Assembly: GCA_030844625.1 (NCBI GenBank)
Contig: JAUUNJ010000006.1
Span: 1-28,415, forward strand
Length of the DNA stretch: 28,415 nt
Direction of reading: 5' to 3'
Source: Roseburia sp.
Lineage (GTDB): Bacteria > Bacillota > Clostridia > Lachnospirales > Lachnospiraceae
Notes under the pieces: model-generated
Databases searched by the model: none
What the model saw: the letters and a program-made list of their open reading frames with translations, nothing else
Told to the model about the DNA's origin: nothing
Program-made: the position numbers and the translations under genes
Part shown: piece by piece, positions 2,708-28,415 of the stretch
Numbering within the stretch: the first letter of the stretch is position 1
How the letters are laid out: every line of letters begins with the position of its first letter

Positions 2708-4465
2708 ATGGACACAAACACAAATAACATTTACCGTGATGTGACAATGGATCAGGTTTCTGAGGCAAACGTGGGTCAGACTATGAAGATTTCCGGATGG
2801 ATTGAAAATATCAGAGATCACGGTGGCGTTTCATTTATTGATTTAAGAGATATGTATGGAGTTATGCAGGTTGTTATGCGTGACACTACACTGCTTGAGG
2901 GACTGAGCAAGGAAGATTGTATTTCCGTTGAAGGTCCTATTGAACACAGGGATGAGGAAACATATAATCCGAAGATTCCAACAGGGACAATTGAGTTAGA
3001 GGCAAGGAAAGTCAGTGTTTTAGGAAAGGTTTACAAACAGCTTCCGTTTGAAATTGTCACTTCAAAAGAGACAAGAGAAGATGTTAGATTAAAATACCGT
3101 TACCTTGATTTGAGAAATACAAAAGTTAGAGATAATATGATTTTTCGATCAAAGGTTATTTCATATTTGAGAGAAAAGATGACAGATATGGGATTCTTAG
3201 AGATTCAGACACCTATTCTCTGCGCATCATCACCGGAAGGAGCAAGAGATTACATTGTTCCTTCAAGAAAATTTAAGGGAAAGTTTTATGCACTTCCACA
3301 GGCACCACAGCAGTATAAGCAGTTATTAATGGTGTCAGGTTTTGATAAATATTTTCAGATTGCACCATGTTTTAGAGACGAGGATGCAAGAGCAGACCGT
3401 TCCCCGGGAGAATTTTATCAGCTAGACTTTGAGATGAGTTTTGCAACACAGGAAGACGTGTTCAGAGTTGGTGAGGAAGTGCTTGCAGATACATTTAACA
3501 AATTTGCACCGGAAGGATATGAGGTGACACAGGCTCCGTTCCCGGTTATCAGCTATAAAGAAGCAATGCTGAAATATGGTACAGATAAACCGGATCTTCG
3601 AAATCCGTTGGAAATTATTGATGTTACAGATTTCTTCCAGAGATGTACATTCAAGCCATTCCACGGCAAGACAGTCCGTGCCATCAAGATAGAACAGAAG
3701 TTGTCAAAGGGACAGCATGAAAAATTGTTGAAATTTGCTCAGGGTATTGGTATGGGCGGATTAGGATATCTGGAAGTATTAGAAGACGGTTCCTACAAAG
3801 GACCAATAGACAAATTTATTCCGGATGATATGAAAGATGAAATCAGAAATCAGGCAGGATTAAAACCAATTGATACCATTTTCTTCATTGCTGACAATGA
3901 AAAGAATGCTGCATTATATGCAGGTCAGATTCGTACAGAATTAGGCACAAGACTTGACCTTATTGACAAGAAGGCATACAAGTTCTGCTACATTAATGAT
4001 TTCCCAATGTATGAATATGACAACGAGACAAAGCAGATGATTTTTACCCACAATCCATTCTCAATGCCACAGGGAGGACTGGAAGCATTAGAGACAAAGA
4101 ATCCGGAGGAGATTCTTGCTTATCAGTATGATATTGTGTGTAATGGTGTAGAACTTTCATCAGGTGCTGTCAGAAACCATGACATGAAGATTATGGTGAA
4201 AGCATTTGAGATTGCAGGATACACAGAGGAAGACTTGAAAGAGAAGTTTGGTGCTCTCTATAATGCATTTCAGTTTGGAGCACCTCCGCATGCCGGCATG
4301 GCACCGGGAGTTGATAGAATGATTATGCTTCTTCGTGATGAGGAAAACATCCGCGAGGTAATTCCGTTCCCAATGAACGGAAATGCACAGGATCTTATGT
4401 GTGGAGCTCCGGGAGAAGTGACGGAACAGCAGTTGAGAGAAGTTCATATTAAAGTCAGACAATAG
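2708..4465 (+). CDS. aspS: Aspartyl-tRNA synthetase, probably non-discriminating
   Basis: A class II synthetase of 585 residues, the normal bacterial length. Order: N-terminal OB-fold anticodon-binding domain (about 20-110), catalytic core with motif 1, flipping-loop region (SSPEGARDYIVPSR) and motif 2 (FRDEDARADRSPGEFYQLDFEM), an inserted GAD domain (about 290-410), and motif 3 near the end (GMAPGVDRMIMLLR). His38 in NIRDHGG occupies the place where discriminating E. coli AspRS has Leu30; His here is associated with non-discriminating enzymes that also charge tRNA-Asn. With an Asn-type T-box upstream this suggests that Asp-tRNA-Asn is made and then amidated by GatCAB, which is not in the window. 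Ribosome site AGAAGGGAG precedes the ATG. Confidence 0.95.
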   Translation: MDTNTNNIYRDVTMDQVSEANVGQTMKISGWIENIRDHGGVSFIDLRDMYGVMQVVMRDTTLLEGLSKEDCISVEGPIEHRDEETYNPKIPTGTIELEARKVSVLGKVYKQLPFEIVTSKETREDVRLKYRYLDLRNTKVRDNMIFRSKVISYLREKMTDMGFLEIQTPILCASSPEGARDYIVPSRKFKGKFYALPQAPQQYKQLLMVSGFDKYFQIAPCFRDEDARADRSPGEFYQLDFEMSFATQEDVFRVGEEVLADTFNKFAPEGYEVTQAPFPVISYKEAMLKYGTDKPDLRNPLEIIDVTDFFQRCTFKPFHGKTVRAIKIEQKLSKGQHEKLLKFAQGIGMGGLGYLEVLEDGSYKGPIDKFIPDDMKDEIRNQAGLKPIDTIFFIADNEKNAALYAGQIRTELGTRLDLIDKKAYKFCYINDFPMYEYDNETKQMIFTHNPFSMPQGGLEALETKNPEEILAYQYDIVCNGVELSSGAVRNHDMKIMVKAFEIAGYTEEDLKEKFGALYNAFQFGAPPHAGMAPGVDRMIMLLRDEENIREVIPFPMNGNAQDLMCGAPGEVTEQQLREVHIKVRQ

Positions 4466-19644: not shown

Positions 19645-20193
19645 TTGGCAGGAATTATAGTTGCATTTCCCAAACAGGAAGATAGTAAAGCAATCAAAGG
19701 TCTTTTAGTCCGAAATGGATATGATGTGGTATCCAGTTGCACAACTGGAGCAAAGGCAATCCATTTAGCAGATCATCTTGGTGAGGGAATCATAATTAGT
19801 GGATACAGACTTCCGGATATGCTATACAGCGAAATTTTTGAGAATGTGCAGGGAAGATTTGAAATGCTGCTTGTGGCATCGAGACAAAAACTTCTTGAGG
19901 ATGATTCGGGTGTGGCAATGCTGGAGATGCCTATAAAAGTAAGGGATTTCCTTAATTCTGTTGAAATGATGGAAAGTAATCTGTATGCGAAAGCGCGCAA
20001 AGGCAAACATAAACCGGGACAGCGCACAGAGGAAGAGAAATCCATTATTAATCAGGCAAAGGCAGTTTTAATGGAAAAGAATAATTTGTCAGAAAATGAA
20101 GCTCATAGATACATACAGAAAACGGCTATGGACAGTGGAAGAACCATGGTTGACACAGCGGACATGATTCTGGCAATTATGTATAAAGAGTGA
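19645..20193 (+). CDS. ANTAR-domain RNA-binding antiterminator with degenerate receiver (NitR-like)
   Basis: A 182-residue protein starting at TTG, preceded by CGGAGGTAAAA. Residues 1-115 have a receiver-like fold, but the phosphorylated Asp is missing: where receivers have an L-D-I-R-M-P strand this has ISGYRLPDM (Gly at the Asp position), and the acidic pair at the N-terminus is replaced by PKQED. Residues 127-182 are an ANTAR domain (EEKSIINQAKAVLMEKNNLSE, then EAHRYIQKTAMDSG), which binds paired RNA hairpins and prevents termination. It probably forms an operon with glnA. Without a phosphorylation site, it is likely controlled by protein contact or constitutively active. The target RNAs are not visible in this window. 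Confidence 0.88.
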   Translation: MAGIIVAFPKQEDSKAIKGLLVRNGYDVVSSCTTGAKAIHLADHLGEGIIISGYRLPDMLYSEIFENVQGRFEMLLVASRQKLLEDDSGVAMLEMPIKVRDFLNSVEMMESNLYAKARKGKHKPGQRTEEEKSIINQAKAVLMEKNNLSENEAHRYIQKTAMDSGRTMVDTADMILAIMYKE

Positions 20194-20237
20194 ATTTAGA
20201 GGAAGAAAAACAAATTTAAAGAAAGAAGGATTGAAAA

Positions 20238-21452
20238 ATGTACAAGATTAATGAAAACTACTTAAAGTTACAGGGAAGCTATTTATTTTCAAACATTGCA
20301 AAAAAAGTAGCTGCTTACAAGGAGGCAAATCCGGACAAGGATGTAATCAGCCTTGGAATTGGTGATGTCACACAGCCTCTTGCACCTGCAGTGATTGATG
20401 CCCTTCATAAAGCGGTTGATGAGATGGCAGTTGCAGAAACCTTTCATGGATATGCACCGGACCTTGGATATGAATTTTTAAGAAGTGCAATCAGGGATAA
20501 TGACTATAAGGCGAGAGGTGTAGATATTGCGCTGGATGAAATTTTTGTCAGCGATGGTGCAAAGTCAGATTCCGGTAATATCGGTGATATTTTTGCTGAA
20601 AATAACAGAATTGCAGTTTGCGATCCTGTTTATCCTGTATATGTTGATACGAACGTTATGGCAGGAAGAACAGGCGAATATATTAAAGAAACAGAAAGCT
20701 GGAGCAATGTGATTTACATGCCATGTACAGCAGCAACAAATTTTGCTCCTGAAATTCCAAAGGAAACGCCGGATATCATCTACCTTTGTTTTCCAAACAA
20801 CCCAACGGGTTCTACAATCACAAAGAATCAGTTACAGGAATGGGTTGATTATGCCAATAAAGCAGGAGCAGTTATTATTTATGATGCTGCATATGAAGCA
20901 TATATTTCAGAGGATAACGTACCTCACACAATTTATGAATGTGATGGCGCAAAGACATGTGCAATCGAACTTAGAAGTTTTTCAAAGAATGCAGGATTTA
21001 CAGGAACCCGTCTCGGTTTCACAGTAATTCCTAAGGAATTAGAATCCAATGGAGTGAAGTTGAACGCGCTTTGGGCAAGAAGACATGGAACAAAATTTAA
21101 TGGTGCTCCATACATTATCCAGAAAGCAGGAGAGGCAGTTTACTCCCAGGAGGGACAGAAGCAGACAAAAGAGCAGGTTGCTTACTACATGAACAATGCA
21201 AAGATTATCATGGATGGACTGAAAAACGCAGGATTTTCAGTAAGCGGTGGTGTAAACGCTCCTTATGTATGGCTTCAGACACCAAACAATATGACTTCAT
21301 GGGATTTCTTTGATTATCTTCTTGAAAATGCAAACATTGTTGGTACTCCAGGTTCCGGTTTCGGACCAAGCGGTGAAGGTTACTTCAGACTGACAGCATT
21401 TGGAACATATGAGAATACACTGAAGGCAATTGAGAGAATTAAAGCACTGTAA
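20238..21452 (+). CDS. dapL: LL-diaminopimelate aminotransferase
   Basis: A 404-residue fold-type I PLP enzyme that converts tetrahydrodipicolinate directly to LL-diaminopimelate in the one-step DapL route to lysine and peptidoglycan. The sequence has the DapL-specific opening (YLKLQGSYLFSNIAKKV), LGIGDVTQPLAPAV, the cofactor region CFPNNPTGS, and the Schiff-base Lys in LRSFSKNAGFTGTRLG. The length matches characterised DapL proteins. The ribosome site GAAAGAAGGA precedes the ATG. It starts 44 bases after the ANTAR gene, so it may share the glnA transcript, linking nitrogen assimilation to wall precursor supply (inference). Ends before a terminator. Confidence 0.95.
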   Translation: MYKINENYLKLQGSYLFSNIAKKVAAYKEANPDKDVISLGIGDVTQPLAPAVIDALHKAVDEMAVAETFHGYAPDLGYEFLRSAIRDNDYKARGVDIALDEIFVSDGAKSDSGNIGDIFAENNRIAVCDPVYPVYVDTNVMAGRTGEYIKETESWSNVIYMPCTAATNFAPEIPKETPDIIYLCFPNNPTGSTITKNQLQEWVDYANKAGAVIIYDAAYEAYISEDNVPHTIYECDGAKTCAIELRSFSKNAGFTGTRLGFTVIPKELESNGVKLNALWARRHGTKFNGAPYIIQKAGEAVYSQEGQKQTKEQVAYYMNNAKIIMDGLKNAGFSVSGGVNAPYVWLQTPNNMTSWDFFDYLLENANIVGTPGSGFGPSGEGYFRLTAFGTYENTLKAIERIKAL

Positions 21453-21514
21453 TTAGTGAAGAAAGTATTTATTGAGGAGGATATTCTTTACATAGATTAT
21501 ATATAGTGGGACGG

Positions 21515-21560
21515 AAGTTGGTATGACAGTCTGATTGTTGTGCCAACTTTTATTTTTTTT
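21515..21560 (+). terminator. Rho-independent terminator after dapL
   Basis: Hairpin AAGTTGGTATGACA (21515-21528) with TTGTTGTGCCAACTT (21535-21549), including G-U pairs, followed by TTATTTTTTTT. It separates the glnA-dapL group from the two-component operon. Confidence 0.85.
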
Positions 21561-21646
21561 ATGATTTAAAATAAGATATAATAAAATTAAAAATTCATAT
21601 ACATAGTGATAATATATATGCTGATGAGTAAACGGGGGATAAAAAT

Positions 21647-22357
21647 ATGAGATTAAGTGTAGCAATATGTGATGATGAAAAAATAATAAGAAGTGAGATT
21701 AAAAGGATATTATTGGAAATCAGACCAGAATATGATGTTTCAATCTATGGTTCCGGTAGAGAGTTGATAAAATCAAAGAAAGTTTATGATTTAATATTTT
21801 TAGATATTGAAATGCCGGAATTGGATGGAATGAAAACTGCTGAAATACTAAGAAAAAACGAAAATGATGAATATATAATTTTTCTTACCAGCCATGTAGA
21901 GCTAATGCCCGAGGCGTTTAAGGTAAAGGCTTTTCGCTTTTTAAACAAGCCCATTGAATCAGAAAAATTTTGTGAGGCAGTCACAGAGGCAGAAAAAGAA
22001 ATATTGAGTAATGAAAAGCTGGCAGTTTCAATCAAAGGTGAAATGAAATTGATTGGTTTAAAGGATATCGTATATCTGGAAGCATTTGGTGACGGTACAT
22101 ATATTTATACAAATAAGGAAGTTATTGAGAGTGGCAATACTCTAAAATATTGGAGCCAAAGACTTGGGACAAAATATTTTTTCCAGACTCATAAGTCTTA
22201 TATTGTGGCATTGAGACATGTTGAAAATATAGACGCAACAAGAGTAAAAATGAAATTTAACTGTAAAGAAGAAGAAGTTCCTGTATCCAGAAGAAAACGT
22301 ACACAATTAAAGCAGGCAGTTTTTGAATTTGTAAGAGGAAACTCTAAGTTTGTATAG
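21647..22357 (+). CDS. LytTR-family response regulator (AgrA-like)
   Basis: A 236-residue two-component regulator. The receiver domain (1-120) has the acidic pair Asp9-Asp10, phospho-acceptor Asp53 in FLDIEMPELDG, Thr in FLTSH and Lys in LNKPIES. The LytTR DNA-binding domain (about 128-232) contains the typical KDIVYLEAFGDGTYIY and FFQTHKSYIVALRHVENI. LytTR proteins bind two direct repeats about 21 bp apart upstream of -35; such a pair lies at 23659-23688 downstream of the partner kinase. GGGGG precedes the ATG. It starts the pair with the GHKL kinase 8 bases downstream. The region is visibly more AT-rich than the housekeeping genes to the left. Confidence 0.93.
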   Translation: MRLSVAICDDEKIIRSEIKRILLEIRPEYDVSIYGSGRELIKSKKVYDLIFLDIEMPELDGMKTAEILRKNENDEYIIFLTSHVELMPEAFKVKAFRFLNKPIESEKFCEAVTEAEKEILSNEKLAVSIKGEMKLIGLKDIVYLEAFGDGTYIYTNKEVIESGNTLKYWSQRLGTKYFFQTHKSYIVALRHVENIDATRVKMKFNCKEEEVPVSRRKRTQLKQAVFEFVRGNSKFV

Positions 22358-22365
22358 GGGGGAAA

Positions 22366-23655
22366 ATGAACGATATAATTTTTAATGTAATCTCTTATTT
22401 AATTGAATTTGCAAGAGTATTATTGGTAAGCATTTATTTATTGGATATTAAAATAGACTATAAAAGGAGAATGTTAGTCGGTTGTGTAATATCAACATTA
22501 GCTATTTCTATTATATCTGCGCGTATATTTTTATATGATTTTTCTGCTGTATTTAATATCATAGCAATAATTATATTGTTTATATCTACATCGGAAAAAG
22601 GAAAAATTAAATTAAGTATAGTGGTCAATATCGGTCTTATTATATTTGATATGTGTATAGGATCAGTAATTATGTTTATTTTGGAGTTACAACCGGAGAA
22701 TTTCATAGATAATTATTGGTTATATATACCTGTTAATTGTGTCACTTTTGCTATAGTTATAATTTTATTACTGCTTTATGTTAAATGGTCTGATAAGACA
22801 ATAGAATATAATATTTCTAAGCGGTATATATTAATATTTATTGTAGGAGTATTATTTATTGGCAGTTTTATATCCTGTGTACAATATATAGGTTTTGCGA
22901 AGGATAATGATTTGGTTTCAAGATTTGCTACATTAGGATTGACTGTTAGCAGTATTGTATTTGTGGTAATAGCTTTTTTACTTATACTTAATAAAAATAA
23001 AAATGAACATTTGAGAAAAGAAATGGAAATCAATGAAAAGTTAATAAAGTCACAGGAAGAATATTATACAATGCTGCTTGAAAAAGAAGAGGAAACTAAA
23101 AAATTCAGACATGATATTCAAAACCATATATATTGTATGCATACTCTTTTGAAAGATAAAGAATATGATGAACTGAACCGTTATTTCGCAAAAATGGATT
23201 CCGAGTTTAAGAATTTAAAAGGAGGGATTCATACAGGCAATAATCTGGTAAATGCGATTGTAAATAATATTAAAAATAAATATGAAGATGTAAAAATTTG
23301 CTGGACAGGGAACATACCTGCAAATATTAATCTTTCGTCTATGGATTTATGTACGATTTTTTCTAATTTGTTAAGTAATGCCTTTGAGGCTGCATGCCAG
23401 GCAGACAAAAAAGAAATAAATGTTTCTATAAAAATAATGGAAGCAAAATTGTTGATTACAATAACAAATTATGTAAAGGTGCAGCCTTATATTGTTGATG
23501 GTAATTTAGTCTCTTCAAAGAAAGAGAAGAACCATGGGTATGGAATAAAAAATATAAGGAAATGTGTAGAGGAGAATAATGGAATGCTGAATATTTCATA
23601 TCAAAAAAATGTTTTTACAGCAGAAGTGCTGTTTTACGATATGATAAGAGTATAA
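22366..23655 (+). CDS. GHKL sensor histidine kinase (AgrC-like)
   Basis: A 429-residue membrane kinase. About six transmembrane helices fill residues 5-208, with almost no extracytoplasmic domain, the AgrC design for sensing peptides at the membrane. A coiled-coil linker (212-246) leads to the dimerisation helix with phospho-acceptor His249 (KFRHDIQNH), then a GHKL ATPase with N-box NLLSNAFEAA (334-343) and G-box HGYGIKNI (390-397). It autophosphorylates and passes phosphate to the upstream LytTR regulator. It starts 8 bases after that gene, with GGGGGGAAA as ribosome site. No agrB-type processing protease or agrD-type precursor is in the window, so the signal is unidentified; the 17-codon ORF downstream is one candidate. 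Confidence 0.93.
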   Translation: MNDIIFNVISYLIEFARVLLVSIYLLDIKIDYKRRMLVGCVISTLAISIISARIFLYDFSAVFNIIAIIILFISTSEKGKIKLSIVVNIGLIIFDMCIGSVIMFILELQPENFIDNYWLYIPVNCVTFAIVIILLLLYVKWSDKTIEYNISKRYILIFIVGVLFIGSFISCVQYIGFAKDNDLVSRFATLGLTVSSIVFVVIAFLLILNKNKNEHLRKEMEINEKLIKSQEEYYTMLLEKEEETKKFRHDIQNHIYCMHTLLKDKEYDELNRYFAKMDSEFKNLKGGIHTGNNLVNAIVNNIKNKYEDVKICWTGNIPANINLSSMDLCTIFSNLLSNAFEAACQADKKEINVSIKIMEAKLLITITNYVKVQPYIVDGNLVSSKKEKNHGYGIKNIRKCVEENNGMLNISYQKNVFTAEVLFYDMIRV

Positions 23656-23658
23656 ATG

Positions 23659-23688
23659 ACCATTCGCCGTCTTTAGTTGACCGTTTAC
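23659..23688 (+). promoter_or_regulatory. Predicted LytTR-binding direct repeats
   Basis: ACCATTCGC (23659-23667) and ACCGTTTAC (23680-23688) are 12 bases apart, 21 bp start to start, the geometry of LytTR sites. The second copy fits the general pattern (W-M-M-G-T-T-N-R-K) except at the last base; the first fits less well. The second copy ends 10 bases before a -35 box. Confidence 0.5.
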
Positions 23689-23698
23689 CGGAAAACTA

Positions 23699-23727
23699 TT
23701 GAAAACTTAATATTTATAAATTATAAA
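23699..23727 (+). promoter_or_regulatory. Candidate LytTR-activated promoter
   Basis: TTGAAA (23699-23704), 17 bases, TATAAA (23722-23727). Transcription would start near 23734, inside the left arm of the adjacent terminator hairpin. The new transcript would therefore lack the full hairpin and escape termination, while readthrough from the kinase gene would be stopped. Confidence 0.55.
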
Positions 23728-23765
23728 AGTTTAGAAGTTAAGAATTCTAAACTTTTATTTTTTTT
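23725..23765 (+). terminator. Terminator of the two-component operon
   Basis: Perfect 12-bp stem AAAAGTTTAGAA (23725-23736) with TTCTAAACTTTT (23745-23756), loop of 8, followed by ATTTTTTTT. Its left arm overlaps the -10 of the candidate promoter. Confidence 0.85.
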
Positions 23766-23783
23766 GAAAGGGGGGGAAAAGTA

Positions 23784-23837
23784 ATGTATATTTGTGGCTT
23801 TGGAATGTTTTGGAGATTATTTAAAAGGTTTTCATAA
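23784..23837 (+). CDS. Candidate 17-residue cationic amphipathic peptide
   Basis: ATG at 23784 follows an exceptionally G-rich ribosome site (GAAAGGGGGGG, ending 7 bases before the ATG). The predicted product is MYICGFGMFWRLFKRFS: one Cys, five aromatic residues in addition to the Trp, and three basic residues in the C-terminal half, so a helix would be amphipathic and cationic. It is the first ORF after the predicted LytTR-controlled promoter and precedes the lysozyme-like gene by 87 bases. No leader or export sequence is apparent. Possible roles are a signal for the AgrC-like kinase, a delta-toxin or PSM-like membrane-active peptide, or a leader peptide. I recognise no family; it could also be chance, but the ribosome site argues for translation. 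Confidence 0.4.
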   Translation: MYICGFGMFWRLFKRFS

Positions 23838-23924
23838 AGAGTAAGGAAAAAGTTTCTATTGGTAATTTATGATAGTTAGTTTAAAGAACATTAAAATCTA
23901 ATAATTGATATAAGGAGAAGATAA

Positions 23925-25235
23925 ATGAAAACAATGAAGCAAACGATTATAGGAGTATTTGCGTTTTTAATGCTCATGACAGTGATATCCGTAGGTGGTT
24001 TAGATGTAACGGTTGAAGCAGCATGTTCGCATAAAGCGACAGGAAAATGGCAGACTACTAAAAATGCAACTTGTGATTCATATGGTACAAAGGTGATGAA
24101 ATGTAAATATTGTGGATATGTTTTACAAACATCCAAAATAGAAAAGTTGGGACATAATTGGGGAACTTATAAAACAACAGTTTCACCAACATGTACATCA
24201 TCAGGAAAGAAAACAAGCAAATGTACAAGGTGTCCTGCAACACGAACAGCAAAAGTATCAGCAACAGGGCATAATGCATCAAGTTCATACATAGTGACAA
24301 AGAATCCAACCTGCGATCAGAAAGGAACCAAGGTAAGAAAATGTACAAAGTGTAGTGCAAATTTGGAAACAAAAAGTATAGCAGTGTTGGGACATGATTG
24401 GGGAACTTATACGGTAACAAAAAAGAAAACATGTACAACAGACGGAACAAAGACAAGAAAATGTTCCAGATGTAAAAAGAAAGATACAGCAAGGATTCCG
24501 ACAACAGGGCATAATTGGGGAAAATATAAAACAACAAAAAAAGCAACATGTACGACAGAAGGAAGCAAGAAAAGAACATGTTCTGCATGTAATAAAAGTG
24601 AGACAACTAAGATTTCAGCATTGGGACATGATTGGGGAAAATATACTGTAATAAAAGAGGCAACATGTACAACAGATGGAAGCATGTCAAGAAGATGTTC
24701 AAGATGTCCTGCGGTACAGCCAAAAACAATCCCGGCATTCTTGGAACCAGCAGTGTTGAAGCATAAAAAGACAATGGAGAAATATGCAAAAGAAAACGGT
24801 ATTTCAGGATATGTTGATGTTCTGCTGGCAATTATGCAGGTGGAAACTGGTGGTAATGAAAAAAAATATAAGGATGTTATGCAGAGCTCTGAAAGCCTGG
24901 GACTGGCACGCAATTCTTTAGATACAGAAAGTTCAATCAAACAGGGATGTGTATATTTTGCAGGATTACTTCAGGAATGCAAAAATAAGAATATTTTAGA
25001 TTTGAATGTTGCCATACAAAGCTACAATTATGGTCCTGAATATATCAATTATGTAAATTCCAATGGGCAAAAACATACTTTTGATCTTGCAAAGAAATTT
25101 GCCTGTAAAAAATCAGGAGGAAAGACCAAACAATACGATAATGCGATAGCTAAAGCTCATAACTATACATGGAGATATGATTACGGAAATATGTTCTATG
25201 TGGAACTTGTAAATCAGTGTATGACAGCTAAATAA
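23925..25235 (+). CDS. Secreted lysozyme-like hydrolase with six Cys/His repeats
   Basis: A 436-residue exported protein. The signal peptide covers residues 1-32 (cut after VEA). Residues 34-268 hold six repeats of about 40 residues, each T-C-x9-C-x2-C followed by G-H-x-W-G (Cys triplets at 50/60/63, 90/100/103, 130/140/143, 170/180/183, 209/219/222, 248/258/261), basic and Thr-rich, looking like small zinc ribbons. Residues about 275-430 form a lysozyme-like domain of the CwlT/Tn916 Orf14 muramidase type, with VDVLLAIMQVETGG (catalytic Glu307), DVMQSSESLG and VAIQSYNYG. It probably cleaves peptidoglycan glycan strands, with the repeats as wall-binding arm. AAGGAG precedes the ATG. It lies upstream of a second secreted protein in the same direction. 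Confidence 0.85.
   Translation: MKTMKQTIIGVFAFLMLMTVISVGGLDVTVEAACSHKATGKWQTTKNATCDSYGTKVMKCKYCGYVLQTSKIEKLGHNWGTYKTTVSPTCTSSGKKTSKCTRCPATRTAKVSATGHNASSSYIVTKNPTCDQKGTKVRKCTKCSANLETKSIAVLGHDWGTYTVTKKKTCTTDGTKTRKCSRCKKKDTARIPTTGHNWGKYKTTKKATCTTEGSKKRTCSACNKSETTKISALGHDWGKYTVIKEATCTTDGSMSRRCSRCPAVQPKTIPAFLEPAVLKHKKTMEKYAKENGISGYVDVLLAIMQVETGGNEKKYKDVMQSSESLGLARNSLDTESSIKQGCVYFAGLLQECKNKNILDLNVAIQSYNYGPEYINYVNSNGQKHTFDLAKKFACKKSGGKTKQYDNAIAKAHNYTWRYDYGNMFYVELVNQCMTAK
24070..24715 (+). repeat. Near-identical 117-120 bp coding repeats
   Basis: DNA-level tandem repeats inside the lysozyme-like gene, with periods of 120, 120, 120, 117 and 117 bp. Recurrent blocks include GGGACATGATTGGGGAA and AACATGTACAACAGA. 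The high nucleotide similarity suggests recent expansion, so copy number may vary between strains. The repeats also create long spurious minus-strand reading frames. Confidence 0.85.
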
Positions 25236-25269
25236 AATGTATTTACTAATTTATGAAGGGGTAATTAAA

Positions 25270-26088
25270 ATGAAAGAAATAAAAAAATACAATAAAGGGA
25301 TAATGTCATTACTTTTAGTATTTTCAATGACATTAACTATATTTTCCAATGGTGTAAAGGCGGAAACAAAAAGTGTGAATGCATCAAGTTATACTTTTAC
25401 ATATAAATGTGCTGGTGCGACAGATATTAAGGTAACTACCAGTAGTAATTCAGATATTTTAATAGAAAAAAAGGGGATAATATTAAAAAAGAAATTAAGT
25501 GAGAAAAAGAAAACAAAAAGTTATAATTATACAGCAAAATTGTCAAATACAAATACATATTGTGTAACAGTAAAAACTAATTCAAAGAAAAAGGCCAACA
25601 TCAAATGTGAAATAAAACAACATTTAGATAAAAAACAGTCAAGCAAAGGTGGAATTTGGACAGCCAAAGGAAATTCCCCGGTTCCTGGTTCTTCAATTAT
25701 TTACAGGAGAAAAATATATTTTACAAAGAGTCAGTGTAGTGAGGCTCTTACATATGTTACAGATGCCAAATATTTAGATTATCAATCTAAATTAGTAAAT
25801 GGTACTATTACTGTATCAGGTTTGATTCTTAGTGGTACCGGTATAAAAACATTAACTGTTGCTTCTACATTTTTAACAATAGGATCAATAGGTTATTCTT
25901 TTGATTTTAAATCTGATACAATTAATAAAATTAAGTTAAAAGGAAATTACAATAAAAAAACTAAAAAATTTGGAAATGGAGTAGTTCTTACAGAATATAT
26001 GTATAATGGAATATCATTTATAGAAGTTGACTCATGGAAAAATAATACAATGCAGGGCGTAGGCGGATATATTGGTTCATGGTCTTAG
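25270..26088 (+). CDS. Secreted protein of unknown family with Gly-rich hydrophobic segment
   Basis: A 272-residue protein. A signal peptide covers residues 1-31 (IMSLLLVFSMTLTIFSNGVKA, then ETK). The next 100 residues are beta-rich and full of Lys, Ser and Thr. A hydrophobic Gly/Ser/Thr-rich stretch at 178-212 (TITVSGLILSGTGIKTL and VASTFLTIGSIGYSF) could insert in a membrane, followed by a Lys-rich and then a Gly/Tyr-rich tail ending GGYIGSWS. I do not recognise the family. The frame opens at 25237, but GAAGGGG precedes the ATG at 25270, and the signal peptide begins there. It starts 34 bases after the lysozyme-like gene, so is probably co-expressed. A pore-forming or bacteriocin-like role is speculation from the hydrophobic segment alone. 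Confidence 0.75.
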   Translation: MKEIKKYNKGIMSLLLVFSMTLTIFSNGVKAETKSVNASSYTFTYKCAGATDIKVTTSSNSDILIEKKGIILKKKLSEKKKTKSYNYTAKLSNTNTYCVTVKTNSKKKANIKCEIKQHLDKKQSSKGGIWTAKGNSPVPGSSIIYRRKIYFTKSQCSEALTYVTDAKYLDYQSKLVNGTITVSGLILSGTGIKTLTVASTFLTIGSIGYSFDFKSDTINKIKLKGNYNKKTKKFGNGVVLTEYMYNGISFIEVDSWKNNTMQGVGGYIGSWS

Positions 26089-26115
26089 AATATTCTGTAT
26101 TTTTACTCTGACACG

Positions 26116-26124
26116 TGTTATAAT
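26116..26124 (+). promoter_or_regulatory. Extended -10 promoter of the small membrane-protein gene
   Basis: TGTTATAAT (26116-26124) is a perfect extended -10. No clear -35 is present, as is usual with this class. It is preceded by the palindrome ACACGTGT (26111-26118). Confidence 0.5.
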
Positions 26125-26190
26125 GCAAAAAGTATATATAAGATATATTGTCTGTGATAAGTGATTTGGAAGAAAGAATGGAGACCAGGT

Positions 26191-26397
26191 ATGAAACCAA
26201 AATATAAACAACCTAAAGATTATATCATTATGGGAATATTATCATTGATTTGTTCAGTGGCAGTATTGGTGGCTTTTTATATAAATAAAAATTTGCATTT
26301 TTCATTTTTAACTTATTTAATCGCTTTTTTATGGCTTTGTATTGCCATTCGGAACTTTTGGTACTTTATTAAAGCAAGAAAAAATGATTTGCGATAA
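26191..26397 (+). CDS. Small two-helix membrane protein
   Basis: A 68-residue protein with a basic N-terminus (MKPKYKQPKDY), two hydrophobic helices (about 12-31 and 37-58) joined by a short NKNLHF loop, and a basic tail (KARKNDLR). The positive-inside rule places both ends in the cytoplasm. The frame is open from a GTG at 26161, but the ATG at 26191 has a better though modest ribosome site (GGAGA). It follows the two secreted proteins and has its own promoter. Size and topology resemble immunity or self-protection proteins found beside secreted toxins and hydrolases, but no family is recognised and this is only context. Confidence 0.6.
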   Translation: MKPKYKQPKDYIIMGILSLICSVAVLVAFYINKNLHFSFLTYLIAFLWLCIAIRNFWYFIKARKNDLR

Positions 26398-26418
26398 AAT
26401 AATTGAGAGGTTATTCCA

Positions 26419-26463
26419 ATGAAGGCAGTATTGGTAATATTACGTTGTTTATATCAGGGATAA
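26419..26463 (+). CDS. Possible 14-residue hydrophobic peptide ORF
   Basis: ATG at 26419 lies 8 bases after GAGAGG and encodes MKAVLVILRCLYQG, ending 17 bases before a strong terminator. It has one Cys and a hydrophobic core like the 17-residue ORF at 23784. It is too short to distinguish from chance. Confidence 0.2.
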   Translation: MKAVLVILRCLYQG

Positions 26464-26480
26464 AAATATAAATCGATGGT

Positions 26481-26510
26481 AACAGAGGGATTTGATGTCC
26501 CTCTGTTTTT
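26481..26510 (+). terminator. Rho-independent terminator ending the secreted-protein region
   Basis: Perfect 10-bp stem AACAGAGGGA (26481-26490) with TCCCTCTGTT (26498-26507), 7-base loop, followed by TTT. Confidence 0.88.
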
Positions 26511-26579
26511 CATATATTATAAAATTTATTTGCAATATATTTTGTTTTCTGTGTGTCTAATAAGTGAAAGGAGTTGAAA

Positions 26580-27146
26580 ATGAAAAACCTGCTGATATCA
26601 GAAAGAGAAAAAAAGATGAATGAACCTGCAAAATTAAATGAAACAGAACTCAGGCATATGATTGATTCCTATGGCAATGACATTTTAAGACTCTGTACAC
26701 TTTACTTAAAAGACAGCCAATTGGCTGAAGATGCAACGCAGGAAACTTTTATTAAGGTCTGGCAGAAATATGATACATATAAGGGTCAGGCAGATGAAAA
26801 AACATGGATTACAAGGATAGCCATAAATATTTGTAAGAACTATTTAAGAACGACATGGTTTAAGCGGATGCATCCAACAGATGTTTTTGACATTGTGGTA
26901 AGCAATGAAAAGCAATACAAACAGATTGATGAGTCCGTGGATTTAATTAATGCTATTTTGGAATTAAAGGATAAGTACAGAGGAGTTTTACTTCTTTATT
27001 ATTATCAGGAATTTTCTGTTAAAGAGATTTCAGATATTTTGGGAATGAAACAGTCTACGGTTTTGTCATTACTTAGCAGAGGAAGAAATCAGTTAAAGCA
27101 AAAATTAAATACAGATTATATGGAAGGAGAAGTTTATGAATTTTAG
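26580..27146 (+). CDS. ECF-family RNA polymerase sigma factor
   Basis: A 188-residue sigma-70 family protein with only regions 2 and 4, as in extracytoplasmic-function sigma factors. Region 2 (about 25-95) includes DSYGNDILRLCTLYLKDSQLAEDATQETFIKVW and the promoter-melting part DEKTWITRIAINICKNYLR. Region 4 (about 125-180) has the HTH YRGVLLLYYYQEFSVKEIS followed by LGMKQSTVLSLLSRGRNQLKQKL. The frame is open from a TTG at 26574, but AAAGGAG fits the ATG at 26580. Its last 11 bases overlap the start of the DUF4179 protein, the usual layout for a sigma and anti-sigma pair. No typical ECF autoregulatory promoter (AAC then CGT) is seen upstream. The inducing stress is unknown. Confidence 0.92.
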   Translation: MKNLLISEREKKMNEPAKLNETELRHMIDSYGNDILRLCTLYLKDSQLAEDATQETFIKVWQKYDTYKGQADEKTWITRIAINICKNYLRTTWFKRMHPTDVFDIVVSNEKQYKQIDESVDLINAILELKDKYRGVLLLYYYQEFSVKEISDILGMKQSTVLSLLSRGRNQLKQKLNTDYMEGEVYEF

Positions 27147-28137
27147 AAATGATGTAAATAAAATTATGAAAAATGTTCAGGTAGATGAAAAAATGACGAA
27201 TGAAATACTGAATCAGACCACAAGAAGAAACAAAGCACATGCTTTTGGGAAAAAGAGAGTTGCGGTGGTGGCAATGGCAGCAGTTTTGTGTATCGGTAGT
27301 GTGGCGGTAGCAGCAAATGAAGTGACAGGTTTCTGGAATAACATTGTTGACAGGTTTATGCAAGTGGAGGAGCAGGAGAAAACAGAACTGATAGAAAAAG
27401 GCTATGTTGATACGGGAGATGAAAAAAATGTTTCGGCAACGGCGGAGGGGATTACAGTTTCCTTGTTGCAGACTGTGGCAGATAAAAAGGGTATGTATAT
27501 TTACCTTAATGTTAAATCCGATAAAATAAAACTTGAGGAAAATATGTTTTTTAATATTTGCTATGTGAGCTTGGAAGGAAAAGGCAGAATAGAAAAACGT
27601 GTTGATGGGATAAATCTTATATCGGAGAATGAAGGAGTTGTGGAACTCTATGCAGGAGCAGATATAGATGATTTTGGATTGGATATTGAAGGTAAGAAAA
27701 TAGAGGTGATATTGAGTGATTTGCAGAATATCTCGATGCAGAATGATGAAATAGACTACAGGACTGTTACCAATTCAAAGTGGGAACTTAGATGGATTGG
27801 AAAGAATTCTGGTGACAGTAAGGTGATTCCGCTAAACAACAGCATCGTTCAGGACAATGTAACAATTAAACTTAAAAAAATGGAAATTACACCGTTATCC
27901 GTGAAGATAGAATATAATACTTCCAAATGGGATCCAATGGAAGGACCGGATTGGCTGGATATTCCATTTACAATTGTGATGAAGGATGGATCAATATTTG
28001 AACTTCCGGAAGATGGTTCTGGTGAAAAAGGTGCTGAACAGGGTGGAAGTTGTGAGGTGATTGATTTTGCAAAAGTGTTAAACATTTATAGTATCGACCA
28101 TGTAATCGTAGGCGGAACAAGTTATGATGTAAACTAA
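27136..28137 (+). CDS. DUF4179-type membrane anti-sigma factor
   Basis: A 333-residue protein. The cytoplasmic N-terminus (1-40, MNFRNDVNKIMKNVQVDEKM) would bind the sigma factor. One membrane helix (about 42-60, VAVVAMAAVLCIGSVAVAA) is followed by a large extracytoplasmic domain of beta-rich DUF4179 type (VSATAEGITVSLLQTVADKKGMYIY and the downstream immunoglobulin-like region). Its ATG lies inside the sigma gene (overlap of 11 bases), with GGAAGGAG as ribosome site, which couples synthesis of the two proteins. By analogy with related pairs it sequesters the sigma factor until an envelope signal triggers release; no regulated-proteolysis site was identified by eye. Confidence 0.85.
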   Translation: MNFRNDVNKIMKNVQVDEKMTNEILNQTTRRNKAHAFGKKRVAVVAMAAVLCIGSVAVAANEVTGFWNNIVDRFMQVEEQEKTELIEKGYVDTGDEKNVSATAEGITVSLLQTVADKKGMYIYLNVKSDKIKLEENMFFNICYVSLEGKGRIEKRVDGINLISENEGVVELYAGADIDDFGLDIEGKKIEVILSDLQNISMQNDEIDYRTVTNSKWELRWIGKNSGDSKVIPLNNSIVQDNVTIKLKKMEITPLSVKIEYNTSKWDPMEGPDWLDIPFTIVMKDGSIFELPEDGSGEKGAEQGGSCEVIDFAKVLNIYSIDHVIVGGTSYDVN

Positions 28138-28187
28138 GATTGATGAAAAGATATTGGGGAAAAGAGTAATTTAAATAGATAATGAAT

Positions 28188-28222
28188 AAAAAGGAGTATC
28201 GTATAGACGGTGCTCCTTTTTA
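28188..28222 (+). terminator. Rho-independent terminator after the sigma/anti-sigma operon
   Basis: AAAAAGGAGTATCG (28188-28201) pairs with CGGTGCTCCTTTTT (28208-28221), allowing G-U pairs, with the T run built into the right arm. Confidence 0.85.
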
Positions 28223-28243
28223 ATATCAGTCAAAAATTTTTTA

Positions 28244-28271
28244 ATGACATATCTTTAAAGTCTGATATAAT
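28244..28271 (+). promoter_or_regulatory. Candidate promoter reading into the terminal repeats
   Basis: ATGACA (28244-28249), 16 bases, TATAAT (28266-28271). Transcription would start near 28278, at the base of the first hairpin repeat, so the repeats may be the 5' end of an RNA that continues past the window. Confidence 0.5.
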
Positions 28272-28273
28272 AT

Positions 28274-28415
28274 AACCTGTCGGAAGGAAAATGAGCGCGA
28301 AGGAAGAGAGCATTCATTTTCACCCGACAGGTTAGCGAAAAAGCTCTGCTTTTGAGCTTGCGGAAGGAAAATGAGCGCGAAGGAAGAGAGCATTCATTTT
28401 CACCCGACAGGTTAG
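28274..28415 (+). repeat. Tandem hairpin repeat, two exact 55-bp copies, 80-bp period
   Basis: Copies at 28281-28335 and 28361-28415 are identical. The first, with its flank, folds into a long hairpin: AACCTGTCGG (28274-28283) with CCGACAGGTT (28324-28333), then GAAAATGA (28287-28294) with TCATTTTC (28314-28321). The outer left arm is not conserved at the second copy. The 25-bp spacer contains another small hairpin (AAGCTC with GAGCTT). Each copy also contains a ribosome-like GGAAGGAAA followed by a 14-codon ORF (MSAKEESIHFHPTG, at 28291-28335 and 28371-28415). The window ends exactly at the end of copy two. Not a CRISPR: the repeat is longer than the spacer and only two copies are visible. 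Confidence 0.85.

What the first reader, a model, noticed from the sequence alone, without database searches (positions are those of the whole stretch)
23641..23930. Nested LytTR switch: operator, promoter and terminator packed into about 110 bp
Between the AgrC-like kinase and the lysozyme-like gene, two LytTR-type repeats (23659-23667, 23680-23688; 21-bp phase) end 10 bases before a TTGAAA/TATAAA promoter with ideal spacing. The -10 overlaps the left arm of a perfect 12-bp terminator. Readthrough from the two-component operon is stopped, but RNA started at this promoter lacks most of the left arm and so escapes. This isolates a regulator-controlled output operon from its own regulator genes. 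Repeats, boxes and hairpin are seen; their function is inferred from AgrA and PlnC-type systems.
Basis: partly seen in the sequence, partly recalled or inferred. Interest (0 to 1): 0.72.

Follow-up and report, generated by a model that had tools for sequence, protein, structure and literature searches.

The report
LytTR promoter buried in a terminator
A bacterial two-component regulator appears to switch on a tiny aromatic peptide gene and a lysozyme-like gene from a promoter buried inside the stop signal of its own operon, a layout that recurs in distantly related bacteria beside similar kinases.

Summary
The sequence observation is confirmed base for base. The half-sites extend to 11-mers, ACCATTCGCCG and ACCGTTTACCG, in 21-bp phase. 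Distantly related kinases (best full-length match 41% identical) often carry the same rigid module directly downstream: ACCGTTYACCG-N10-ACCGTTYACCG-N8-TTG-N20-TATAAT.

The nested terminator recurs: 14 of 26 operator promoters directly after such a kinase (0.48 expected from shuffles), 2 of 19 elsewhere. Arms of unrelated sequence covary: 7 of 10 pairs change on both sides. This supports an insulator: read-through RNA from the kinase operon terminates, while RNA started at the promoter lacks the left arm.

Many relatives have tiny Trp/Phe-rich ORFs there, for example MRCHYRWLWWFFGR and MQKMILIDWLWWLFQ. I think these are leaderless peptides, probably signals for the adjacent AgrC-like kinase, resembling streptococcal leaderless communication peptides but beside a membrane kinase. 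Their role is inferred. Escape is only approximate: the window's nascent RNA keeps a weak stem, L013's a strong one.

The parts
21647..22357 (+). LytTR response regulator (Response_reg + LytTR)
   Evidence: Pfam
22366..23655 (+). AgrC-like GHKL sensor kinase (HATPase_c_5)
   Evidence: Pfam; NCBIfam AgrC model matched over residues 16-409 at 35 bits, far below its cut-off of 500
23659..23669 (+). LytTR half-site 1, ACCATTCGCCG
   Evidence: sequence; conserved in relatives
23680..23690 (+). LytTR half-site 2, ACCGTTTACCG, 21-bp phase
   Evidence: sequence
23699..23704 (+). -35 TTGAAA, 8 bases after half-site 2
   Evidence: the 8-base gap is kept in relatives
23722..23727 (+). -10 TATAAA, spacer 17
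23723..23758 (+). terminator hairpin, 14 pairs (arms 23723-23736 / 23745-23758), left arm overlaps the -10
23758..23765 (+). T-tract of the terminator
23734..23734 (+). predicted transcription start (7th base after the -10)
   Evidence: inferred from the promoter
23770..23776 (+). GGGGGGG, likely ribosome-binding site (pairs with CCUCC using one G-U)
   Evidence: sequence, inference
23784..23837 (+). 17-codon ORF MYICGFGMFWRLFKRFS, candidate leaderless peptide
   Evidence: translation; equivalents in relatives
23925..25235 (+). secreted Lysozyme_like protein (PF13702) with Cys-rich repeats, second gene of the output operon
   Evidence: Pfam; starts 87 bases after the tiny ORF, no strong terminator between
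25237..26088 (+). secreted protein of unknown family, probably the last gene of the output operon
   Evidence: no Pfam match
26481..26507 (+). terminator-like site that may close the output operon

Best explanation
Positions 23656-23765 are a combined operator, promoter and terminator that ends the regulator-kinase operon and starts its output operon. The phosphorylated LytTR regulator binds the two half-sites centred at about -60 and activates the TTGAAA/TATAAA promoter. RNA polymerase arriving from the kinase gene transcribes both arms and stops at the T-tract. RNA begun near 23734 has only the last three bases of the left arm and mostly reads on into the tiny ORF, the lysozyme-like gene and the 283-codon gene. 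Most likely the 17-aa Trp/Phe-rich peptide is exported without a leader and acts on the adjacent AgrC-like kinase, giving positive feedback; the terminator prevents basal expression of signal and lysozyme by read-through. Shown: sequence elements, their conservation and covariation. Inferred: binding, start site, termination and escape, translation, export and signalling.
For: Operator rarity: 12 of 26 genomes chosen for a kinase relative (up to 2 mismatches), 5 of 297 and 2 of 397 genomes of two families (up to 1 mismatch; the 297 include two genomes already known); the pattern read backwards gave 0 in every genome.
Nested hairpin: 14 of 26 promoters directly downstream of such a kinase (0.48 expected from shuffles) against 2 of 19 elsewhere, Fisher p = 0.004. 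Two kinase-downstream promoters without it (L113, L016) have a separate strong terminator upstream of the operator.
Covariation in 11 of the 13 loop-type promoters: 91.8% of cells paired against 24-38% with partners slid; 7 of 10 pairs changed on both sides.
Repeated gain or loss: 8 changes on the kinase tree, at least 5 forced by well-supported branches.
Escape: in 12 of 16 nested promoters the nascent RNA has no stem, in L114 -1.3 kcal/mol.
Peptide: a tiny ORF with ribosome site follows 29 of 45 operator promoters (14.6% at random positions); Trp in 25 of 29 against 28% of controls; aromatic content 28.8% against 11.8%, p = 1e-11. L014 and L017 differ at 3 synonymous and 0 other codons. In 6 of 22 loci a terminator-like hairpin of -16.5 kcal/mol or better follows within 160 bases of the tiny ORF (L004, L007, L008, L009, L099, L111), so there the peptide seems to be the only product.
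No AgrB above cut-off in 12 of 21 genomes that carry the module.
Against: Nothing was measured. The window's stem has only 2 G-C pairs, and its nascent RNA can form a weaker stem beside the T-tract (-3.1). L013, and partly L003, keep stems in the nascent RNA (-10.7 and -4.9), so escape is not general. 12 of 26 kinase-downstream promoters have no nested hairpin, and splitting the promoters by any upstream gene rather than by the kinase gave no significant difference (14 of 32 against 1 of 8, p = 0.22). Near-copies (L012/L018, L014/L017/L117, L126/L129) inflate the counts; about 10 nested cases are independent. Sites were picked by eye. The peptide is not universal: L012, L015, L018 and L098 start a long ORF instead, and L013's ORF stops after 6 codons. 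In one search, 64 of 94 kinase loci had no Trp-rich tiny ORF within 350 bases downstream, and about 6 of the 30 positives are expected by chance. The strict rule misses the window's own ORF because of its poly-G ribosome site and accepts some doubtful ones. L126 and L129 differ at 4 synonymous and 6 other codons, no sign of purifying selection. No link between peptide and kinase sequence was tested.
Confidence: 0.65

Rival explanations
1. The operator-promoter and the terminator are real, but the overlap is only compaction: a terminator that ends the kinase operon happens to share bases with the next promoter, with no selected insulation.
For: 12 of 26 kinase-downstream promoters do without it; only 3 bases lie between the window's kinase stop codon and the operator, so space is short; on the kinase tree the nested state is not clustered (199 of 500 shuffles need as few changes).
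Against: Similar geometry in the loop type (left arm ends near the first T of the -10 in most), covariation and enrichment after kinases.
Confidence: 0.2
2. The inverted repeat around the -10 is a DNA operator for a dimeric repressor rather than an RNA terminator.
For: Symmetry flanking the -10 also fits a repressor site, and covariation does not tell the two apart; L015 has a long palindrome there without a T-tract.
Against: Arm sequences differ between loci while the LytTR half-sites stay constant; a hairpin plus T-tract of this strength is rare in shuffles (0.48 expected in 26).
Confidence: 0.1
3. The tiny peptides are not signals but secreted or membrane-active effectors (like phenol-soluble modulins, which AgrA also controls) or small antimicrobials.
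For: No leader, aromatic, some with cationic C-terminus (KRRR, RRRR); LytTR-controlled; some other genes under the operator look like membrane proteases (Rce1-like in L024, DUF3267 in L098, M48/M56 in L028) that could be immunity or processing factors; the window's operon encodes a lysozyme.
Against: The constant neighbour is the kinase, whereas the following genes differ from locus to locus; most are 11-22 aa, short for modulins (recalled: 20-45).
Confidence: 0.25
4. The tiny ORF is a translated leader that tunes expression of the next gene, with no function as a peptide.
For: In the window the lysozyme-like gene starts 87 bases after it, and in several other loci a larger gene follows within about 100 bases.
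Against: In 6 of 22 loci a strong terminator-like hairpin follows the tiny ORF within 160 bases; residues are aromatic and alike in type.
Confidence: 0.1
5. The lysozyme-like gene is driven by the second promoter-like site at 23764-23792 (TTGAAA-17-TATATT), independent of the LytTR site.
For: 10 of 12 consensus match.
Against: It lies over the ribosome site and start of the tiny ORF; such sites are common by chance here (37 found, 41.3 expected in 20000-28415).
Confidence: 0.1

Closest known systems
AgrA / PlnC / ComE-type LytTR promoters
   Same: LytTR regulator, two direct repeats in 21-bp phase, pair centred about -60 (PMC4227749 for AgrA, passage seen), next to their own two-component genes
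   Different: Half-site is ACCGTTYACCG; optimal 17-bp spacer (agr P2 and P3 have 18 and 20, same passage); terminator nested in the promoter
agr quorum sensing (AgrBDCA)
   Same: AgrC-like GHKL kinase plus LytTR regulator, candidate peptide gene beside them
   Different: No AgrB found beside the module (19 window ORFs scanned; in the 9 relatives with AgrB it lies on another contig or, in G790, about 130 kb away); the peptide has no AgrD layout (recalled: cyclised core plus acidic tail)
Leaderless communication peptides (SIP and relatives, RopB receptors)
   Same: Tiny leaderless hydrophobic, aromatic peptides encoded next to their regulator (PMC10518010, passages seen)
   Different: The examples seen there are 8-9 aa with a cytosolic RopB-clan receptor; these are mostly 11-22 aa beside a membrane kinase and LytTR regulator. 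The main text of PMC10518010 has 0 occurrences of 'two-component' and of 'histidine kinase'
Phenol-soluble modulins (recalled)
   Same: Leaderless peptides under direct AgrA control
   Different: Mostly shorter, Trp-rich, encoded directly beside the kinase
Promoters protected from outside transcripts, e.g. IS10/IS50 fold-back RNA; frd terminator/ampC promoter overlap (recalled)
   Same: RNA entering from upstream folds differently from RNA started at the internal promoter, or terminator and promoter overlap
   Different: Here the -10 itself sits in the terminator, and the promoter is the target of the operon being terminated

Membership tests
LytTR-activated promoter (AgrA type) | Neighbouring regulator with LytTR DNA-binding domain | tested here: met
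   Pfam LytTR 77 bits
LytTR-activated promoter (AgrA type) | Two direct repeats about two helical turns apart, upstream of -35 | tested here: met
   21-bp phase, 0.01 expected by chance; conserved
LytTR-activated promoter (AgrA type) | Match to the AgrA consensus [TA][AC][CA]GTTN[AG][TG] | tested here: inconclusive
   8 of 9 and 7 of 9 by eye; the consensus is recalled and comes from no call
LytTR-activated promoter (AgrA type) | Repeat pair centred near -60 | tested here: met
   -60.5 to the predicted start; about -60 for AgrA
LytTR-activated promoter (AgrA type) | Regulator binds and activates | not testable with these tools
   no binding or expression data
Intrinsic terminator | Stem-loop directly followed by a T-tract | tested here: met
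   14 pairs, -13.1 kcal/mol, T8
Intrinsic terminator | G+C-rich stem | tested here: not met
   2 G-C pairs in the window; most nested stems of relatives are more stable
agr system | AgrB processing protein in the locus | tested here: not met
   no AgrB among 19 window ORFs scanned; none above cut-off in 12 of 21 relatives' genomes (the genomes may be incomplete)
agr system | Kinase is AgrC, regulator is AgrA by NCBI's models | tested here: not met
   35 of 500 and 31 of 400 bits: homologous, below cut-off
Leaderless communication peptide (RopB) system | Tiny leaderless hydrophobic/aromatic peptide beside its receptor gene | tested here: inconclusive
   ORF of this kind beside the kinase; that the kinase is its receptor is not tested; definition from PMC10518010 passages
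Leaderless communication peptide (RopB) system | Cytosolic RopB-clan receptor gene as partner | tested here: not met
   the adjacent regulators are a LytTR regulator and a GHKL kinase
Peptide pheromone | Secreted peptide changes activity of the kinase | not testable with these tools
   needs culture work

The most novel reading that the evidence does not exclude
An undescribed class of peptide signalling in Lachnospiraceae and Oscillospiraceae: leaderless, mostly 11-22-residue Trp/Phe-rich peptides, made without AgrB or a leader, sensed by AgrC-like membrane kinases, and autoinduced through a rigid LytTR promoter whose -10 is often buried in the terminator of the receptor operon, so that only signal-driven initiation, not read-through, expresses the signal.
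Probability: 0.42. Interest if true: 0.85.

Novelty: new variant of a known kind. Interest (0 to 1): 0.66.

Why it matters
If right, it gives a ready family of candidate peptide signals in gut and rumen bacteria, and each can be made synthetically and tested. It also shows a compact, evolvable way to isolate a regulator operon from the operon it controls: the terminator is built over the promoter so that only RNA begun there escapes. That is testable in a simple reporter. The operator is specific enough (0 matches of the backwards pattern) to predict regulons from sequence.

Tried and rejected
No genome is held for the window, and the closest kinases (70-79% identity, P0002-P0005) come without DNA, so conservation at close range could not be tested. 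A viral-contig scan with the kinase alignment found no relative; plasmids matched only within the aminotransferase and lysozyme-like genes; phages gave no match; Rfam none at gathering score in 20000-28415. Of 59 genomes from L003's family only L003's own had a match. Considered and rejected: the peptide as an AgrD (no AgrB beside it, no AgrD layout); the hairpin as a conserved repressor site (arms differ).

Corrections along the way: L018 was not found by its anchor; L026 was read at a wrong site; L093 was taken at the first of its two sites, and at that site the contig begins inside the operator, so only one half-site is seen; the 'non-codirectional' label was wrong for L088, L094 and L098a, which have other genes upstream, and perhaps for L022-L024. 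An automatic split by any upstream ORF gave 14 of 32 against 1 of 8, p = 0.22, not significant. One search uses the corrected sites and the question 'directly after a kinase of this family or not'. Sites were chosen by eye; kinase loci without a recognisable operator, and L122, are not in the 26; L020's more distant site is among the 19. The consensus is partly by construction, since sites were selected by half-site match. The covariation alignment used 11 of 13 loop-type promoters (L093's second site and L021 left out).

Literature: ten searches (in only 15 of 116 and 12 of 31 papers were listed) showed no paper describing this operator, the peptides or the nested arrangement; only open-licence PubMed Central papers are held. 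Of PMC10518010, PMC3673130, PMC4227749, PMC8895600 and PMC10838665 I saw passages only; of the rest search listings with the starts of abstracts.
Full report
OBSERVATION. Three bases separate the kinase stop codon from the first repeat; both repeats extend to 11-mers (ACCATTCGCCG 23659-23669, ACCGTTTACCG 23680-23690). With up to 3 mismatches the pair occurs once in the window, 0.01 expected. The hairpin (14 pairs with its A-U ends) is far more stable than shuffles (z = -4.10; p = 0.003 with the U-tract required). The generic scanner missed promoter and terminator for formal reasons (TATAAA without final T; only 2 G-C pairs).

GENES. Upstream: response regulator with LytTR domain (21647-22357) and GHKL kinase (22366-23655). 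The kinase matches the staphylococcal AgrC model over its length but at 35 bits against a cut-off of 500. Between terminator and lysozyme lies a 17-codon ORF, 23784-23837, MYICGFGMFWRLFKRFS, with GGGGGGG seven bases before its ATG; no strong terminator separates it from the lysozyme gene. A secreted unknown (25237-26088) and a terminator-like site (26481-26507) follow.

RELATIVES. The kinase search returned 258 proteins, 120 listed, the closest other than the window's own at 70-79% identity but without DNA; the identical one is named as from a Eubacterium sp. MAG. From genome contigs 80 of 184 loci were kept, best full-length match 41% identical, one partial match 46%. Of the 28 loci printed downstream of the kinase, I recognise an operator by eye in 15: ACCGTTYACCG-N10-ACCGTTYACCG-N8-TTG, a 17-base spacer, a -10, and in most a strong ribosome site and a tiny ORF. 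As a whole-genome pattern it is rare and specific: 12 of 26 genomes chosen for a kinase relative (up to 2 mismatches), 5 of 297 and 2 of 397 genomes from two families (up to 1 mismatch; two of the 5 were already known, and L102, one of the 2, lacks a proper TTG), with 0 matches of the backwards control throughout. In one part of the kinase tree (L003, L010, L013, L026) the repeats are inverted and abut the -35.

NESTED TERMINATOR. For 45 operator promoters I asked whether a hairpin followed by a U-tract has at least half its left arm upstream of the predicted start, with -10 kcal/mol or better and p of 0.05 or less against 300 dinucleotide shuffles. Directly after a kinase of this family: 14 of 26, 0.48 expected. 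Elsewhere: 2 of 19 (both in L093; one lies at the start of the contig with half its operator missing, the other follows a 265-codon ORF without Pfam match). Fisher p = 0.004. An earlier automatic split by any upstream ORF was not significant (14 of 32 against 1 of 8). Near-copies reduce the 14 to about 10 independent cases. Two kinase-downstream promoters without the nested hairpin have a separate strong terminator before the operator (L113 -19.3, L016 -21.0 kcal/mol). In the loop type the -10 lies in or near the loop and transcription would start in the right arm; in the window, L003 and L013 the hairpin lies further downstream and the -10 overlaps or borders its base. An alignment of 11 of the 13 loop-type promoters, not fitted to structure, has 91.8% of cells paired, 24-38% when partners are slid, and 7 of 10 pairs with changes on both sides. 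On the kinase tree the nested state needs 8 changes, at least 5 by well-supported branches, so it has been gained or lost repeatedly; it is not clustered on the tree (199 of 500 shuffles as low).

ESCAPE. Folding RNA from the predicted start up to the U-tract: no stem in 12 of 16 nested promoters, -1.3 kcal/mol in L114, -1.8 in the window (-4.3 if the start is two bases earlier; cut after 23757 an 8-pair stem of -3.1 is possible), but -4.9 in L003 and -10.7 in L013. So the escape argument is good for the loop type, fair for the window and poor for L013.

PEPTIDES. Tiny ORFs after the operator: L003 MRCHYRWLWWFFGR, L009 MQKMILIDWLWWLFQ, L010 MVQCDLRWLWWLLRRR, L001 MLTKLNWLWRLFF, L004 MKGLVDWFWWIFG, L014 MILCDFDIFWFWKRRR, L021 MNILLWSGFWGWFFG, L099 MKCDMFAWIWKWFM, L112 MISVCIINFFAWLFG, L126 MFGMLCHWDFFRFLRRYYG and others. 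By a fixed rule 29 of 45 promoters are followed by an ORF of 8-40 codons with a ribosome site (14.6% of random positions); 25 of 29 contain Trp (28% of control ORFs); aromatic content 28.8% against 11.8%. That rule accepts some doubtful ORFs (L004c, L007c, L008c, L026, L093a, L098b) and misses the window's (poly-G site), L006's and L112's; near-copies are counted separately. Among 94 distinct kinase loci 30 have a Trp-rich tiny ORF within 350 bases downstream, against 6.6% of random windows; some more distant kinases have one upstream instead, e.g. L043 MSFASAFCEWLKYIVGVH, for which I ran no control. L014 and L017 differ in 3 codons, all synonymous; L126 and L129 in 4 synonymous and 6 other codons. 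L012, L015, L018 and L098 have a long ORF in place of the peptide, and L013's stops after 6 codons. In 6 of 22 loci with a listed peptide a terminator-like hairpin of -16.5 kcal/mol or better follows within 160 bases (L004, L007, L008, L009, L099, L111; the first three are near kin). Where a gene follows it varies: thioredoxin-like (L003), radical SAM (L016), M48/M56 peptidase-like (L028), VWA surface protein (L014), FtsX-like (L101), a second LytTR regulator (L011), lysozyme (window). Membrane-protease-like proteins recur under the operator (L024, L028, L098).

INTERPRETATION. The added point is that the most regular output is a tiny aromatic peptide, which suggests a signalling loop through the adjacent kinase. 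AgrB is missing above cut-off in 12 of 21 genomes with the module (genomes may be incomplete), so AgrB processing does not seem required. The nearest known idea is the leaderless communication peptide class, whose receptors are cytosolic RopB proteins (PMC10518010, passages). Whether these peptides are signals, membrane-active effectors or leaders cannot be settled from sequence. The odds given for rivals are not exclusive of one another.

Noticed in passing
L132 (IMG/VR contig, 50.9 kb), 2801-2843 minus strand: A viral contig carries one exact operator with a TTG and a TAAAAT at 17 bases: a phage promoter that may listen to the host's LytTR regulator.
   Followed up: partly
L131 (IMG/VR contig), around 5447: Tandem array of ACCGTTCACCGATT-type units on a 140-kb viral contig.
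   Followed up: no
L003, L010, L013, L026 just after the kinase gene: The half-sites are inverted and abut the -35 (GAACGGTATTG), a different operator geometry in one part of the kinase tree.
   Followed up: partly
L122, about 10-80 bases after the kinase stop: Two TGTCGTTC(A/G)TGG repeats sit inside the loop of a terminator-like hairpin, by eye another way of nesting operator and terminator.
   Followed up: no
L093, 17 and 1403: Two nested operator-terminator copies on one 2.9-kb contig, the second before a tiny peptide ORF.
   Followed up: partly
L011, 3925-4638: A second LytTR response regulator follows the peptide ORF, possibly a cascade.
   Followed up: no
window 26574-28137: ECF-type sigma factor (26574-27146) followed by a DUF4179 protein (27136-28137), probably sigma and anti-sigma.
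   Followed up: no
window 21513-21551: Terminator-like stem between the aminotransferase gene and the regulator.
   Followed up: no
window 23925-25235: The N-terminal half of the lysozyme-like protein is, by eye, a row of Cys-rich repeats without a Pfam match.
   Followed up: no
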